Assembly (NCBI GenBank): GCA_903859815.1
Contig: CAIOOA010000228.1
Coordinates: forward strand, 1 to 64,000
Length of the DNA stretch: 64,000 nt
Direction: 5' to 3'
DNA from: an uncultured Methylococcaceae bacterium
Lineage (GTDB): Bacteria; Pseudomonadota; Gammaproteobacteria; Methylococcales; Methylococcaceae
Part shown: positions 1-55,619 of the stretch, piece by piece
How positions within the stretch are numbered: the stretch's first letter is position 1
How the letters are laid out: every line of letters starts with the position of its first letter
Made by a program: the position numbers and the translations under genes
The notes under the pieces: generated by a model
What the model was told of the DNA's origin: nothing
Databases searched by the model: none
What the model saw: only the letters and a program-made list of their open reading frames with translations

Positions 1-106
1 CGTCCGCCGCTCGCCGCCAGGCCGAAGCCCGCGCTGCCGCCCGACTTGCATGTGTTAGGCATGCCGCCAGCGTTCAATCTGAGCCATGATCAAACTCTTA
101 TGTTTG
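1..106 (-). rRNA. rrs: 16S ribosomal RNA, 5' end (partial)
   Basis: Read on the minus strand, this stretch contains the universal 16S 5' motif AGAGTTTGATCATGGCTCAG. The ATTGAACGCTGGCGGCATG block, the CACATGCAAGTCG block and the GC-rich V1 helix follow, and the gene continues off the left edge. The 5' end at about 106 is set by analogy with E. coli, where the mature RNA begins 7-8 bases before AGAGTTTG. The sequence type is proteobacterial, most like Gammaproteobacteria. A strong promoter and a boxA lie upstream in the right order. Confidence 0.97.
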
Positions 107-49732: not shown

Positions 49733-51085
49733 ATGACCAACCAAATCTTCTCCAGCCGCGACCAAGCTGTCCTTTGGCATCCCTGCACCCAAATGAAGGA
49801 CCATGAGTTGCAGCCGGTCATCCCAATTCGGCGAGGGCTAGGCGTTTGGTTGGAAGATTTCGATGGCAAACGTTATCTGGATGCGGTCAGCTCGTGGTGG
49901 GTCAACCTGTTCGGTCACGCCAACCCTTACATCAATGCCGCATTGCGCCATCAGTTGGAGAGCTTGGAGCATGTCATCCTTGCTGGCTTCACCCATGAAC
50001 CTGCAGTTCGTCTTGCGGAAAGGCTAATTGATCTAGCCCCGAAAGGCTTAAGCCGTTGCTTTTATGCCGACAATGGTTCTTCGGCGGTGGAAGTAGCTTT
50101 GAAAATGAGCTTCCATTATTGGCGCAATCGAGGTCAGACTGGCAAAACTCGATTCGTCAGCTTGGAAAACAGTTATCACGGTGAAACCTTGGGGGCGTTG
50201 GCAGTCGGTGACGTGGGCTTGTATAAAGACACCTACGCGCCTTTGCTGATGCAAGTCATCACCGCGCCTTCACCCGATTGCTATCACCGCGAACCGGGCG
50301 AGTCTTGGCAAGATTATTCCATCCGCCGTTTTGCCGATATGGAGCGATTATTGGCAGAACAAGCCGATAAAATTTGTGCCGTCATCGTCGAACCCTTGGT
50401 CCAATGCGCGGGCTCCATGCGCATGTACGATCCGATCTATCTATCCCTGCTACGCGATGCCTGTGACCGCTACGGTGTCCATCTGATCGCCGATGAAGTG
50501 GCGGTAGGCTTTGGCAGAACAGGGACGATGTTTGCCTGTGAGCAAGCGGACATTCGGCCCGATTTCCTATGTTTGTCAAAAGGCATCACCGGAGGGTATC
50601 TCCCGCTTTCCGCAGTGTTGACAACCAATGATGTTTACCAAGCTTTTTACGGCGATTATGTCGCCCAAATCGCCTTTTTGCATTCCCATAGCTATACCGG
50701 CAACGCCCTAGCCTGTGCCGCCGCGCTTGCCAGCCTTGATTTGTTTGAACAAGAAGATGTGCTAAACCGCAATCGAATCCTCGCCCAATCCATGGCTGAA
50801 GCCGCCGCACCGTTGGTGGATCACCCGCATGTGTCCGAAGTGCGTCAAACTGGCATGATCCTAGCCATTGAAATGGTCAAAGATAAATCCAAACGTGAGG
50901 CTTATGACTGGCGGGAACGCCGGGGCTTGATGGTTTACCGCCATGGCTTGAAACGTGGCGTGTTGTTGCGGCCTTTGGGCAATGTCATCTATTTCATGCC
51001 GCCTTATGTCATCAACGCCGACGAAATCGAATTCATGGCAACAGTGGCAAAGGAAGGCATTGCGTTGGCAACAGCCGGTGCTTAG
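49733..51085 (+). CDS. bioA: Adenosylmethionine-8-amino-7-oxononanoate aminotransferase
   Basis: This 450-residue class III PLP aminotransferase has WHPCTQMKDHE at the N-terminus, AVSSWWVNLFGHANP, YADNGSSAVEVALKMSFHYW, IADEVAVGFGRTGTMFACE and the PLP lysine in LCLSKGITGGYLPL. It converts KAPA to DAPA with SAM as the amino donor in biotin synthesis. The WHPCTQM start and SSWWV motif are specific to BioA. No other bio gene is nearby. Confidence 0.95.
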   Translation: MTNQIFSSRDQAVLWHPCTQMKDHELQPVIPIRRGLGVWLEDFDGKRYLDAVSSWWVNLFGHANPYINAALRHQLESLEHVILAGFTHEPAVRLAERLIDLAPKGLSRCFYADNGSSAVEVALKMSFHYWRNRGQTGKTRFVSLENSYHGETLGALAVGDVGLYKDTYAPLLMQVITAPSPDCYHREPGESWQDYSIRRFADMERLLAEQADKICAVIVEPLVQCAGSMRMYDPIYLSLLRDACDRYGVHLIADEVAVGFGRTGTMFACEQADIRPDFLCLSKGITGGYLPLSAVLTTNDVYQAFYGDYVAQIAFLHSHSYTGNALACAAALASLDLFEQEDVLNRNRILAQSMAEAAAPLVDHPHVSEVRQTGMILAIEMVKDKSKREAYDWRERRGLMVYRHGLKRGVLLRPLGNVIYFMPPYVINADEIEFMATVAKEGIALATAGA

Positions 51086-51102
51086 CCTAGAGTATCGGTG
51101 AA

Positions 51103-51308
51103 CAGCAATTCTCATTTTGGCGAGGAAGCCGTCATTCCGGCATGGACTGCCGGAATCCAGTGCCATGGATGGTAACTTGTCGGTGCATAAGTGTCTGATA
51201 AAACATGACTGGCAAATCCTAGTTTCACGTCCCTGTGACTGGATTCCTGCTTCCCGGCAGGAATGACGGGTTATACATCAACGCTTTGCCTCATAATGAG
51301 AATTGCTG
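51103..51308. mobile_element. 206-bp MITE-like non-autonomous element
   Basis: The element is bounded by a 14-bp perfect terminal inverted repeat (CAGCAATTCTCATT at 51103-51116, its inverse at 51295-51308). It is flanked by the 9-bp direct repeat ATCGGTGAA (51094-51102 and 51309-51317), a target-site duplication. Inside, a second inverted pair (GTCATTCCGGCATGG... from 51131 and ...GGCAGGAATGACGG to 51269) lets the whole unit fold. There is no transposase gene; one would have to come from elsewhere in the genome. It sits between bioA and rsmE. Confidence 0.85.
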
Positions 51309-51384
51309 ATCGGTGAAGCAAAGCAAGCTTTGCCGCTCTATTCTTTGTAAAATGGAGCTTAATTGTCATTCACGAGGGTAATCC

Positions 51385-52116
51385 ATGCGCATTTCCCGTT
51401 TCTACCTCCCCCAACCCCTAAGCTCCGGGGCCACTATTCAACTCGAAGATGAAAGCGCCCATTATCTGCGCACGGTGCTGCGCTTGAAAAAGGGGGCGGA
51501 TTTGGTTGTGTTCAACGGCAAAGGGGGTGAATACCCCGCCACCTTGGTCGAGGCGCATAAGGGTGCGGTCAGTGTCGTATTGGGCGATTTCAACCCACGT
51601 GAGGCGGAATCTTTGCTCTTCACGACCTTGGGTTTGGGTATTTCGCGGAGTGAGCGCATGGACATGGCGATCCAAAAGGCAGTCGAACTGGGGGTTGCCA
51701 GCATCACCCCATTGCTGGCGGAGCGTTGCGTCGTACAACTGGACGACGATGCACGCAAGGAACAGCGTCTCCGCCACTGGCGCAAGGTCGCTCAGGGCGC
51801 ATGCGAACAATGCGGACGCAACCGAATTCCTGAAATAGCCGAGCCTTTTGCCTTGGAAGAGTGGGCGGCACAACAAACCGGGTTAAGACTGTTCCTAGAC
51901 CCCAACGGAGTGAAAACCTTACGCGAACTGCCGCAGCCGCAAAGCCCAATCAGCCTTATGATTGGGCCCGAGGGAGGCTTTGCAGAACATGAGCGGGATT
52001 TGGCTGTTAAAGCCGGGTTCACCGCCTTGAAACTAGGTCCGAGGATATTACGCACCGAAACCGCAGCCTTGGCGGCCTTGGGGGCTATCCAAACGCTTTG
52101 GGGGGATTTGGGGTGA
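51385..52116 (+). CDS. rsmE: 16S rRNA (uracil-1498-N3)-methyltransferase
   Basis: This 243-residue SPOUT methyltransferase has LEDESAHYLRTVLRLKKGADL in its PUA-like N-terminus, GISRSERMDMAIQKAVELGVASITPLLAERC, and the knot region MIGPEGGFAEHE with LGPRILRTETAALAAL. It methylates U1498 of 16S rRNA. Confidence 0.95.
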   Translation: MRISRFYLPQPLSSGATIQLEDESAHYLRTVLRLKKGADLVVFNGKGGEYPATLVEAHKGAVSVVLGDFNPREAESLLFTTLGLGISRSERMDMAIQKAVELGVASITPLLAERCVVQLDDDARKEQRLRHWRKVAQGACEQCGRNRIPEIAEPFALEEWAAQQTGLRLFLDPNGVKTLRELPQPQSPISLMIGPEGGFAEHERDLAVKAGFTALKLGPRILRTETAALAALGAIQTLWGDLG

Positions 52117-52182: not shown

Positions 52183-52449
52183 ATGCAAACCATAGAAACA
52201 CTTGCCAATGGTCAAATCGTCATCCCTGCGAATTTGCGCCAACGCTTTGGAATCAAGCAGGGTTCACGTTTGGAAATTCGTCAGGCCAACGATCATCTGG
52301 AACTCTATGTTCTCCCTGATGACCCTATCAGCCTTTTTCGTGGTTCGCTCAAAGCAGAAGACTCAATGGCGGCAGAATTGATAGAAGAGCATCGTCAAGA
52401 AGTAGAGTTTGAGGTTTTAGGTGATGACTTGAGAAGGGAAAGCGTTTGA
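52183..52449 (+). CDS. AbrB/MazE-like (SpoVT-AbrB) antitoxin or regulator
   Basis: This 88-residue protein has ETLANGQIVIPANLRQRFGIKQGSRLEI, the swapped-hairpin DNA-binding domain of AbrB/MazE/VapB proteins. An acidic C-terminal tail (RQEVEFEVLGDDLRRESV), typical of antitoxins, follows. No PIN or MazF toxin follows; the next gene is the TIR-NB-ARC-TPR gene 209 bases downstream. It could be an orphan antitoxin that lost its toxin, or a regulator of its neighbour. Confidence 0.75.
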   Translation: MQTIETLANGQIVIPANLRQRFGIKQGSRLEIRQANDHLELYVLPDDPISLFRGSLKAEDSMAAELIEEHRQEVEFEVLGDDLRRESV

Positions 52450-52658: not shown

Positions 52659-55619
52659 ATGGCCACCACAGACTCACAGCCGAAACGAGTTTTCATAAGC
52701 TATAGCCACAAAGACGAAGACTGGAAAGAACGTCTGCATACCCAGCTTAAAGTGCTGGAACTGGAAAACCAGTTGACCGTATGGGAAGACCGCCAAATTG
52801 CCGCCGGAGACAACTGGAATCCGGCCATTGAACAAGCCATCAACTCGGCACAAGTCGCCATTTTGTTGATTAGTGCTGACTTCTTGGCTTCAAGCTTCAT
52901 CCGTGGCGAAGAAGTACCGCGCTTGTTGGAACGTCGGACGAAGGACGGCTTACGGGTCATTCCGTTGATTCTCAAGCCCTGCCCTTGGCAAGCGGTCCCT
53001 TGGCTGAAAGCCATCCAAGGCAGGCCCAAAGACAACAAGCCGCTTTCGGGCTTCAATGCGCATGAACAAGACCAATGCCTAAGCGATTTGGCAATGGAAA
53101 TTCTAGAATTGACGCGAAAGCCAGCGCAAGCTTGCCATCATGTACAAAATGCTAGTAACGGGGTTGCAAACCCCGTCACGCCTTCACACCCCGCAACGCC
53201 CATTCCGCCCAACAACCTCCCCTATCACAGCCTTGGCAGCTTGTTCAAAGGCCGCGACGGGTTTCTTGATGCTTTGCACCGTCAATTCCAGCGCGAACCC
53301 AAGCGCAAGCAAGCCATCGTGCCATGGCAAGCGATACACGGGCTGGGCGGCATCGGCAAATCCCGCGCCGCCGTAGAATATGCCTGGCGCTACGCCGACG
53401 AATACCAAGCCCTATTGTTCTTGAAGGCAGACAACCCGACTATGCTGGTTGGCTCGCTGGCCGGCCTGTGTCCGTATTTGGGCATAGACTTGGACACCAC
53501 CGACGAAACCTTGCGCGCCCAGACAGTAAAGCAATGGTTGCAGCGTCACCCTGGCTGGCTGTTGTTGGTGGACAATGTGGACGACGAAGTGGCGGCGGCG
53601 GCGGTGGACGGCTGGCTGCAAGCCTTGGACGGAGGCCATGTGCTGATTACCAGCCGCATCAAGGCATGGCGGCCCGAGGTGAAAGCCCATCGTCTGGATG
53701 TGCTGGATGTGGCATCCGCCGCCGACTTCCTGTTGGAGCGCACCGAAGACGGGCGGATCGCCAAGTCCGACGATGACAGTCTGGCGAAGGAATTGGCTAA
53801 GGAATTGGATGGCCTGGCCCTGGCCTTGGAGCAAGCGGGGGCATTCATCAACCGGCATAATCTAAGCTTTGCCGATTATCTCAGCCGTTGGCGTAAGGCC
53901 GACCAGAAAACCCGCGCATGGCATGACCCACGGGTGATGCAATACCCTAGGCCGTTGGCGACGACCTGGCAGACCAGTGTCGAAACCCTGAACCCACAAG
54001 CCCGCACCTTGCTGGATGTGCTGGCTTGGCTGGCCCCGGAACCGATACCGCGCTTCCTGTTTGATTATGCTTATGCCCCAGAGGGATTGCCCAAAGCCTT
54101 CTACGAAGACAGTGGGTTCCCGGCGCGGGTGTTGGCAAACATCATCCAAAGTAGGGCGGCAACCCCTTGCCGCCAAACGGATGGGCAGGACCCTAGTCGG
54201 CATGGGGATGCCGACCTACTGGAAGCTGATTGTCGGCATGGGGATGCCGACCTACCCCTTAATCAAAGCGGGGAGGAAGAGGCATTCGACTGTGAAGCCG
54301 CCTTGGCCGACTTGCGCGGCGTGTCATTATTATTGACCGCCAAGGAAGCCGATTACCCGAATGAAGGCAAACTGCACCGGGTATTGGCCTTGATTACCCG
54401 TGAACGGCAGGATGAGGCGGCAAGCCAGCAGAATCTGCAAGCGGCCTTGACCTTGGTGAATGCGGTGGCACCTTTGGATTCTGTTGATGTACGGTCTTGG
54501 CCGGTTTTGGAAGCCATCCAAGAACATGTAAACGCCGTGACCAATTTCGCCGAAGAACTAGGCATAGCCGAACCGACAGCAAGGCTGTTGAACCAATTAG
54601 CCATATTCTTCAAGACCAAAGCCCAATATCAACAAGCCGAGCCGCTGTATCGACGCAGCTTGAAATTGAATGAATCCAGTGAGCGGCCGGATCAAGGCAT
54701 CATTGCCACCTGCATCAACAATCTCGCCACTTTGTTGCAGGCCACTAACCGTTTGGAAGAAGCCGAGCCTTTGATGCGTAGGGCGTTGGATATCGACGAA
54801 GCCAGTTTCGGCAAGACGCATCCGAATGTCGCCCTCCGACTCAACAACCTCGCACTATTATTGCAGGACACTAACCGCTTGGACGAAGCCGAGCCTTTGA
54901 TGCGTAGGGCCTTTGCTATCGACGAAGCCAGTTTCGGCAAGACGCATCCAAATGTCGCCCGTGACCTCAACAACCTCGCCGGTTTGTTACAGACCACTAA
55001 CCGCTTGGACGAAGCCGAGCCTTTGATGCGCAGGGGGGTGGAAATTTTTGAACAAAGTTATGGCAAAACTCATCCCAATGTTGCCACCGCACTCAACAAC
55101 CTCGCTCAATTGTTACAGGCCACTAACCGTTTGGTTGAAGCCGAGCCTTTGATGCGCAGGGCTTTGGAAATCGACGAGGCCAGTTTCGGCAATAATCATC
55201 CCAAAATTGCCACCGATCTCAACAACCTCGCCCAGTTGTTAAAGGACACTATCCGCTTGGATGAGGCCGAGCCTTTGATGCGCAGGGCCTTGGACATCGA
55301 CGAAGCCAGTTTTGGTAAAGATCATCCAGAAGTTGCCACCGATCTCAGCAACCTCGCACTATTGTTAATGGCCACTAACCGTTTGGATGAAGCCGATCCC
55401 TTGATGCGCAGGGCTTTATTAATTTTCTTAAACTTCACCCGCAACACCGACCATCAACACCCGCATCTACAAATCGCATTCGGCAATTATTATGAATTAT
55501 TGCAAGCAATGGGCAAGACCGAAGCCGAGATACTAGAATGCCTATTGTCCCTAGGCCCGGAGGCGGGGTTCACGCCCGAGGCATTTGCGCAATTGTTGAT
55601 GAGTAGCAACACCCTCTAA
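52659..55619 (+). CDS. TIR-NB-ARC-TPR protein (NLR-like, candidate defence effector)
   Basis: This 986-residue protein has three parts. A TIR domain at about 8-150 has VFISYSHKDE at 11-20 and SSFIRGEEV, where Glu84 is in the position of the catalytic Glu of TIR NADases. An NB-ARC STAND NTPase at about 195-500 has P-loop GLGGIGKS at 228-235, Walker B LLLVDNVDD at 301-309, LITSR and a GLALALEQAGAFI motif. Six or seven kinesin-light-chain-type TPRs of 42 residues run from about 650 to 940. By analogy with bacterial STAND defence proteins, the TPRs should sense a trigger, the NTPase oligomerise and TIR deplete NAD+. This function is inferred. The linker at about 165-185 and 498-535 is coded by palindromic repeats. 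Confidence 0.88.
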   Translation: MATTDSQPKRVFISYSHKDEDWKERLHTQLKVLELENQLTVWEDRQIAAGDNWNPAIEQAINSAQVAILLISADFLASSFIRGEEVPRLLERRTKDGLRVIPLILKPCPWQAVPWLKAIQGRPKDNKPLSGFNAHEQDQCLSDLAMEILELTRKPAQACHHVQNASNGVANPVTPSHPATPIPPNNLPYHSLGSLFKGRDGFLDALHRQFQREPKRKQAIVPWQAIHGLGGIGKSRAAVEYAWRYADEYQALLFLKADNPTMLVGSLAGLCPYLGIDLDTTDETLRAQTVKQWLQRHPGWLLLVDNVDDEVAAAAVDGWLQALDGGHVLITSRIKAWRPEVKAHRLDVLDVASAADFLLERTEDGRIAKSDDDSLAKELAKELDGLALALEQAGAFINRHNLSFADYLSRWRKADQKTRAWHDPRVMQYPRPLATTWQTSVETLNPQARTLLDVLAWLAPEPIPRFLFDYAYAPEGLPKAFYEDSGFPARVLANIIQSRAATPCRQTDGQDPSRHGDADLLEADCRHGDADLPLNQSGEEEAFDCEAALADLRGVSLLLTAKEADYPNEGKLHRVLALITRERQDEAASQQNLQAALTLVNAVAPLDSVDVRSWPVLEAIQEHVNAVTNFAEELGIAEPTARLLNQLAIFFKTKAQYQQAEPLYRRSLKLNESSERPDQGIIATCINNLATLLQATNRLEEAEPLMRRALDIDEASFGKTHPNVALRLNNLALLLQDTNRLDEAEPLMRRAFAIDEASFGKTHPNVARDLNNLAGLLQTTNRLDEAEPLMRRGVEIFEQSYGKTHPNVATALNNLAQLLQATNRLVEAEPLMRRALEIDEASFGNNHPKIATDLNNLAQLLKDTIRLDEAEPLMRRALDIDEASFGKDHPEVATDLSNLALLLMATNRLDEADPLMRRALLIFLNFTRNTDHQHPHLQIAFGNYYELLQAMGKTEAEILECLLSLGPEAGFTPEAFAQLLMSSNTL
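53157..53180 (+). repeat. In-frame palindrome inside the TIR gene (linker 1)
   Basis: The inverted repeat ACGGGG/CCCCGT with a TTGCAAA loop codes for part of the linker NASNGVANPVTPS between TIR and NB-ARC. It resembles the palindrome at 52543-52571 upstream of the gene. It preserves the reading frame. Confidence 0.6.
54155..54251 (+). repeat. Cluster of palindromes inside the TIR gene (linker 2)
   Basis: GGCGGCAA/TTGCCGCC (54155-54174) is followed by two identical 20-bp palindromes, GTCGGCATGGGGATGCCGAC, at 54196-54215 and 54232-54251. They encode the repeated peptide RHGDADL. They lie between the NB-ARC and TPR parts, and no protein domain is recognisable there, so this looks like an in-frame insertion of intergenic-type repeats. 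Confidence 0.75.

What the first reader, a model, noticed from the sequence alone, without database searches (positions are those of the whole stretch)
51094..51317. 206-bp MITE with 14-bp TIRs and a perfect 9-bp target duplication
CAGCAATTCTCATT is inverted at both ends and ATCGGTGAA is directly repeated outside, so this is a recent transposition product. It carries a nested inverted repeat resembling common GTCATTCC-type intergenic repeats, suggesting that this repeat type is spread by a trans-acting transposase.
Basis: seen in the sequence. Interest (0 to 1): 0.62.

Follow-up and report, generated by a model that had tools for sequence, protein, structure and literature searches.

The report
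Mobile DNA element carrying palindromic repeats
A short gene-less piece of mobile DNA, present in dozens of copies in this bacterium, carries a pair of palindromic repeats inside ends recognised by a cut-and-paste enzyme, and in unrelated bacteria the same ends carry other repeats, which suggests one way such repeats spread.

Summary
Window 51103-51308 is a 206-bp element with perfect 14-bp inverted ends and a perfect 9-bp target duplication. The genome has at least 40 similar copies. Of 26 two-ended 205-207-bp copies, 14 have 9/9 and 6 have 8/9 duplications. A sister species lacks the insertion. The ends, about CAGCAATTCTCATTWTGR, recur across phyla, both on mini-elements and on insertion sequences encoding a transposase with a Tn5-like predicted fold. 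That transposase was not found in the window's own assembly; sister species and a Methylomagnum plasmid have it.

The payload is a pair of CGTC-type palindromes, a class for which no transposase was known (PMC3733652). A homologous 139-bp core (78% identical) also sits in a second frame with different ends, shared with a Tn5-type transposase gene in this same genome. In other phyla the first frame carries other palindromes; three tested hosts carry their own high-copy repeat in it.

Best reading: a transposase-dependent mini-element with exchangeable repeat payload. That such frames explain the spread of these repeats is supported in this genome and inferred elsewhere. No transposition was assayed.

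The parts
51094..51102 (.). left 9-bp target duplication ATCGGTGAA
   Evidence: empty allele in sister genome G002
51103..51308 (+). 206-bp non-autonomous element (A frame plus CGTC core), no ORF of its own
51103..51116 (+). left terminal inverted repeat CAGCAATTCTCATT (conserved end extends to about 51120)
51130..51159 (+). CGTC-type REP 1: CGTC tag, stem ATTCCGGCA/TGCCGGAAT, tail CCA
51160..51239 (.). spacer of the 139-bp core, homologous (core 78% identical overall) to the core of B-frame elements
51240..51268 (-). CGTC-type REP 2, opposite orientation, CGTC tag outward
51295..51308 (-). right terminal inverted repeat
51309..51317 (.). right 9-bp target duplication ATCGGTGAA

Best explanation
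The element is a MITE of an insertion-sequence lineage whose ends read about CAGCAATTCTCATTWTGR. Its transposase, a DDE-type enzyme with a Tn5-like predicted fold, acts in trans on these ends, excises the element and inserts it with a 9-bp stagger, which is filled in as the 9-bp duplication. Its cargo is a pair of outward-tagged CGTC REP hairpins with an 80-bp spacer, which is copied along with the frame. Shown: ends, duplications, copy number, empty sister allele, the transposase next to the same ends in other genomes, the shared core in two frames. Inferred: that this enzyme moved this copy, the catalytic steps, and that carriage in frames is the main route by which CGTC REPs multiplied in this genome. 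The enzyme may now be lost here or unassembled, so the family may be dormant.
For: At least 40 copies at 87-100% identity. TSDs: of 26 two-ended 205-207-bp copies, 14 at 9/9, 6 at 8/9, 1 with a 10-bp repeat. Sister genome G002 lacks it. IS with same ends and 9/9 TSD: L124, 1602 bp, and L167, 1886 bp, and a Methylomagnum ishizawai plasmid copy L283. Of loci fetched by transposase similarity alone that contain an N- or C-terminal part of the gene, a correctly oriented end lies within 350 bp in 9 of 15 (genus) and 8 of 14 (other genomes). Tn5 transposase is the only clear match of the model (Foldseek E 7.5e-9 to 2.3e-8; Z 11.7-13.7 against 8.0 for the next). Genome-wide 79 CGTC pairs; the first 15 fetched all lie in a frame: 9 A (one of them with an A end on one side only), 5 B, 1 C.
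Against: No A-type transposase in the window's own assembly by protein (0 candidates) or profile (no match at E<=1), although the assembly is rated 99% complete. Five of 26 two-ended copies have no clear TSD. The G002 empty allele differs by 6 bp at the site, so it is not a letter-perfect pre-insertion sequence. The structural model is poor (mean pLDDT 58). Curated families do not claim the transposase.
Confidence: 0.82

Rival explanations
1. The CGTC core is the real mobile unit: it moves by its own (unknown) enzyme and has inserted repeatedly into resident palindromic frames, which are merely its preferred targets.
For: A homologous core sits in A and B frames (78% identity) and related pairs in C frames; in sister genome G006 a CGTC pair sits inside another palindrome that itself sits in an A frame (L333); REPs inserted in palindromes were reported before (PMC3733652, section 7).
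Against: In this genome the 206-bp copies share the same frame-core junctions and have their duplications outside the frame, so frame and core multiplied as one unit. Duplications at core edges were not looked for systematically. No enzyme for CGTC repeats is known (PMC3733652).
Confidence: 0.3
2. Frames and cores are exchanged by recombination or template switching at the hairpins, not by transposition of the core; transposases then amplify whichever combination carries good ends.
For: Hybrid L279: A end on one side with a B-like core; 97-bp versions in G005 keep the frame and one fused palindrome, as expected from deletion between the two REPs; 277/278-bp versions carry a 71/72-bp insert within one REP.
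Against: Only a single hybrid was seen; direction and mechanism not tested.
Confidence: 0.35
3. The element is kept for a host role, such as a transcript terminator or mRNA stabiliser behind the upstream gene, and its mobility is incidental or past.
For: It lies 3' of the aminotransferase gene ending at 51085 and before the gene at 51385; very stable fold; CGTC stems vary with pairing kept, ATTCCGGC, ATTCCTGC, ATTTCGGC, ATTCTGGC.
Against: Absent at the same place in sister G002, whose two flanking genes are conserved; copy number and duplications are explained by transposition alone. No expression data.
Confidence: 0.1

Closest known systems
QMITE2 of Coxiella burnetii (PMC5896051)
   Same: About 190-bp MITE with inverted ends, 7-11-bp direct repeats and a REP inside; short copies look like bare REPs (abstract passage and section 8 read).
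   Different: Its REP is of the GTAG type; the passages read name no mobilising enzyme; no exchange of payload between frames is described in them.
CGTC REPs (Di Nocera et al. 2013, PMC3733652)
   Same: Inner hairpins have the CGTC tag, an 8-9-bp stem starting AT, a short loop, a CCA tail, and come in pairs (section 6).
   Different: [quoted passage not shown] here they sit in transposon-like frames with identified transposases. It did note CGTC-1 dimers of H. neapolitanus inside 41-bp palindromes (section 7), which may be another such frame (untested).
ISNCY-labelled insertion sequences of cyanobacteria (Gloeothece record NC_014534.1)
   Same: Transposase 48% identical to the query over 95%.
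   Different: Autonomous element; ISNCY is only a label for unclassified ISs (recalled).
Tn5 / IS50
   Same: Predicted fold of the A transposase; 9-bp duplication (recalled for Tn5). The B-frame transposase is a sequence relative of Tn5 transposase (E 6e-26) and the B end shares TTATACACAAGT with the Tn5 outside end (recalled).
   Different: A ends are unrelated to Tn5 ends (recalled); A transposase has no sequence match to it in the PDB set.

Membership tests
MITE | short, non-coding, with terminal inverted repeats | tested here: met
   206 bp, 14-bp perfect ends; no ORF of 150 aa or more overlaps it (206 bp is too short for one)
MITE | target site duplication of fixed length | tested here: met
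   9 bp; 14 of 26 perfect, 6 of 26 at 8/9
MITE | multiple copies | tested here: met
   40 matches reported, a capped list
MITE | autonomous partner with matching ends in the same genome | tested here: not met
   no hit in G000; partner present in sister species and family. Not required by all definitions of a MITE; the draft assembly may lack it
MITE | autonomous partner with matching ends in relatives | tested here: met
CGTC REP | CGTC tag, 8-9-bp stem beginning AT, loop of 4-5, CCA tail | tested here: met
   68 perfect hairpins of the form CGTC-8-bp stem-loop-stem-CCA in 1.05 Mb of fetched own-genome DNA (loci overlap), five control tag/tail pairs gave 0, 1, 0, 0, 0; definition read in PMC3733652. 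REP 2 has a 6-base loop by this count
CGTC REP | mostly head-to-head pairs | tested here: inconclusive
   pairs with tags outward; I could not match this to the paper's HH/TT naming
IS4 family (NCBIfam NF033591) / Pfam DDE_Tnp_1 for the A transposase | score above curated cut-off | tested here: not met
   best 21.5 bits against 152; 21.1 against 23 for PF01609
Tn5-like fold for the A transposase | structural match standing above background | tested here: met
   Foldseek E 7.5e-9, Z 11.7-13.7 against 8.0 for the next chain; model confidence is low
Tn5/IS50 family for the B-frame transposase | Tn5-type DNA-binding domain | tested here: met
   PF14706 80.5 bits, cut-off 24; Tn5 structures E 6e-26
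CGTC REP mobilised by RAYT (Y1 transposase) | RAYT gene flanked by the REP | not tested
   no Y1 search was run in this genome

The most novel reading that the evidence does not exclude
Transposon-end frames act as general carriers of intergenic palindromes: one frame lineage (CAGCAATTCTCATTWTGR ends, Tn5-fold transposase) has in different phyla repeatedly captured the host's own dominant REP (CGTC in Methylococcaceae, GTAG-type in Verrucomicrobia- and Akkermansia-labelled genomes, others in cyanobacteria), and such carriage, by several transposases, is how REPs without an enzyme of their own multiply; bare REPs would be frames that have decayed.
Probability: 0.4. Interest if true: 0.75.

Novelty: new variant of a known kind. 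Interest (0 to 1): 0.55.

Why it matters
How CGTC REPs spread was left open in 2013: they 'apparently lack a dedicated transposase' (PMC3733652). Here they are found inside transposon-like frames, for two of which a transposase with matching ends is identified, one of them in the same genome. This makes the question directly testable with a simple transposition assay, and suggests looking for frames around REPs generally. The MITE by itself would be ordinary.

Tried and rejected
Chance inverted repeat: rejected by copy number, controls and duplications.

PF01609 transposases in the genome as partner (5 hits): none carries the A end; one (L063/L064) turned out to be the B-frame enzyme.

Cargo genes in A frames: L039 (end followed by a reading frame that looks like an antitoxin, recalled resemblance) has no matching right end in the fetched stretch; not pursued.

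Phage or plasmid carriage: CAGCAATTCTCATTWTGGC gave 1 stretch in viral contigs; the 206-bp element gave none in plasmids.

Literature: end sequence as text, 0 papers; MITE plus Methylococc, 1 unrelated listing; MITE/REP/nested/ISNCY, 2 listings, neither opened; CGTC terms, 8 listings, of which PMC3733652, PMC5896051 and PMC12306157 were opened (passages or sections only); Methylumidiphilus, 8 listings, none opened; all six of MITE/REP sequences/transposase/inserted within/palindromic/TIR, 1 listing, PMC3733652; ISAs1 plus MITE plus 9-bp, 0. Review PMC10969869: passages only. In that held library I found no report of this frame; most subscription papers are not held.

PDB sequence search with the A transposase: only two unrelated weak hits.

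Full report
Observation. The sequence shows ATCGGTGAA at 51094-51102, CAGCAATTCTCATT at 51103-51116, its inverse at 51295-51308 and ATCGGTGAA again at 51309-51317. The two exact end copies are the only ones in the window. Between them lie two opposed hairpin repeats, 51130-51159 (+) and 51240-51268 (-). The element lies between an aminotransferase gene (class III, 49733-51085) and an RNA methyltransferase gene (51385-52116).

Copies. The search of the own genome (G000, 5.80 Mb, 315 contigs) returned 40 matches, the number scored out of 238 first-look candidates, at 87-100% identity. Exact ends number 141; with up to two mismatches 268 against 13 for the reversed control. Deduplicated in the fetched DNA, 37 two-ended elements were seen; of 26 in the 205-207-bp class 14 have 9/9 duplications, 6 have 8/9, one has a 10-bp repeat, and five have none of these (one of the five matches at 9 of 10). 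Of seven 277/278-bp elements two have 9/9 and one 8/9. The control, left flank of one element against right flank of another, gave 8/9 or better in 1 of 1332 pairs.

Empty site. The upstream gene was found in all 7 genomes of the genus. In G002, 95% identical there, the downstream gene follows after a short gap, and the element is missing: GAGTATCGG is followed directly by AAAGCAAGC, 6 bp short of the own flanks joined once. In G001 the gap holds an unrelated repeat and no such end. The other four sisters were too diverged at the downstream gene to align and were not judged.

The enzyme. Two loci are intact insertion sequences with perfect 9-bp duplications: L124 (Desulfoferrobacter, 1602 bp, TCCAGCTGA) and L167 (Nostoc mirabile, 1886 bp, GGATTTTAG). 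L163, L142 and L139 have both ends and related reading frames (broken in L142 and L139) but no matching duplication. The family matches curated profiles only below their cut-offs. A relative on a cyanobacterial plasmid is annotated 'ISNCY family transposase'; a relative lies on a Methylomagnum ishizawai plasmid of 133,705 bases, the length of contig C3 of G013, a genome of the window's family; there an element with matching ends and a 9/9 duplication spans 3311 bp with an insert splitting the gene. To avoid circularity I took loci fetched by protein similarity only: of 35 such loci 29 hold an N- or C-terminal part of the gene, and 17 of those 29 have a correctly oriented end within 350 bp (9 of 15 in the genus, 8 of 14 elsewhere; several loci are halves or copies of one element). 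An AlphaFold2 model from five sequences is weak (mean pLDDT 58) but Tn5 transposase is its only clear match. In the own genome neither the protein nor the profile finds a copy. The tool warns that an empty answer shows nothing unless the query is known to work; the same profile does find matches in 6 of 10 other genomes, of which G013 had supplied a row of the profile.

The payload. The hairpins fit the published definition of CGTC REPs (PMC3733652, sections 6 and 7 read). In 1.05 Mb of fetched own DNA (loci overlap) 68 distinct perfect hairpins of that form were found, with stems ATTCCGGC 37, ATTCCTGC 24, ATTTCGGC 5, ATTCTGGC 1 and ATCAATGC 1; five control tag/tail combinations gave 0, 1, 0, 0, 0. 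The differing stems remain paired, but the scan required perfect pairing, so this only suggests that the hairpin itself is kept. Genome-wide there are 79 pairs of the short form. Among 54 distinct pairs in the fetched DNA, which was chosen in part through the A ends, 43 have an A end on at least one side, 7 a B end, 3 a C end and 1 none. The first 15 pairs by contig order, a sample not chosen by ends, are 9 A, 5 B, 1 C. In a 684-kb sample of long contigs, which includes the window, 23 loose REP matches were found, 10 inside complete A elements and 13 not; by my reading most of the 13 lie in B or C frames or at a contig edge, four have no recognised frame, and one, at 52218 in the window, is probably a chance match.

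Second frame. B elements end in about CTCATCGTTATACACAAGT and sit in the middle of GTTCCCAAGC-type palindromes. The same end, in the same kind of surroundings, stands before a Tn5-type transposase gene in this genome (C42, L064, gene cut by the contig edge). The A and B cores align over 139 bp at 78%. So one core lineage rides in two frames with unrelated ends and different transposases. A hybrid exists with an A end on one side and a B-like core (L279). B duplications I judged only by eye (7-8 of 9 in some copies, worse in L270) and the palindromic target makes them weak evidence. C frames (about GCAATCGCATGAAG) have no identified enzyme.

Payload exchange. Of 44 two-ended A-type elements listed from relatives and other phyla (up to 400 bp, duplication at least 7/9), 2 carry the CGTC hairpin by the strict pattern, both from Methylococcaceae; the rest carry other sequences, one of them (L068, same genus or near) a diverged form of the hairpin. 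Interiors, with 20 bp trimmed at each end, fold better than shuffles: of 39 tested, 22 have z below -3 and 29 below -2, median -4.0; ten are above -2. The repeat GTAGTCCCGGCTTTAGCCGG, seen in A elements of G041, G042 and G044, occurs 523, 257 and 52 times in those genomes (up to two mismatches) and 1, 0, 0, 0, 0 and 0 times in the six other genomes of that search. In the loci then fetched from those three hosts 13 distinct A elements were seen, 10 with that repeat. In the sister genome G006 the A frames read carry several payloads, often a GGGCGGGTTTGGAACCCGCCC palindrome; in G005 a CGTC core or a single fused CGTC palindrome. These host-matched payloads suggest repeated capture, though the capture step itself was not tested.

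Judgement. The MITE is secure. That its enzyme is the A transposase is strongly supported by matching ends and 9-bp duplications but not assayed. That carriage in frames multiplied CGTC REPs in this genome is well supported; that it holds for REPs in general is a hypothesis with a known precedent (GTAG REP inside QMITE2, PMC5896051).

Noticed in passing
window 52659-55619 (+): 986-aa protein with an N-terminal TIR domain, a weak NB-ARC/AAA region and many TPRs; best PADLOC match ThsB1 TIR-like. Looks like a TIR-STAND immune-type protein next to the RNA methyltransferase gene.
   Followed up: partly
window 1-105 (-): 5' end of a 16S rRNA gene: the contig starts in an rRNA operon.
   Followed up: no
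L064 (G000:C42, first about 1.1 kb): Tn5-type transposase gene preceded by CTCATCGTTATACACAAGT, the end of a second MITE frame that inserts in GTTCCCAAGC palindromes.
   Followed up: partly
L043, L045, L051 (277/278-bp elements): About 71-72 bp containing CAAATCGGCAGGACAGCCGATTTG sits inside one CGTC REP; another nested palindrome.
   Followed up: no
L283 2055-5365 (Methylomagnum plasmid): The A transposase gene is split by an insert of about 1.8 kb that I take for a group II intron (recalled resemblance, not searched).
   Followed up: no
L333 (G006:C41): Triple nest: CGTC pair within a TGTTGACACA-type inverted flank within a GGGCGGGTT palindrome within an A frame.
   Followed up: no
L290 (G001, same intergenic gap): A different hairpin repeat (GTTCGCCCTGAGCCTGTCGAAGGG...) occupies the gap where the window has the MITE.
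   Followed up: no
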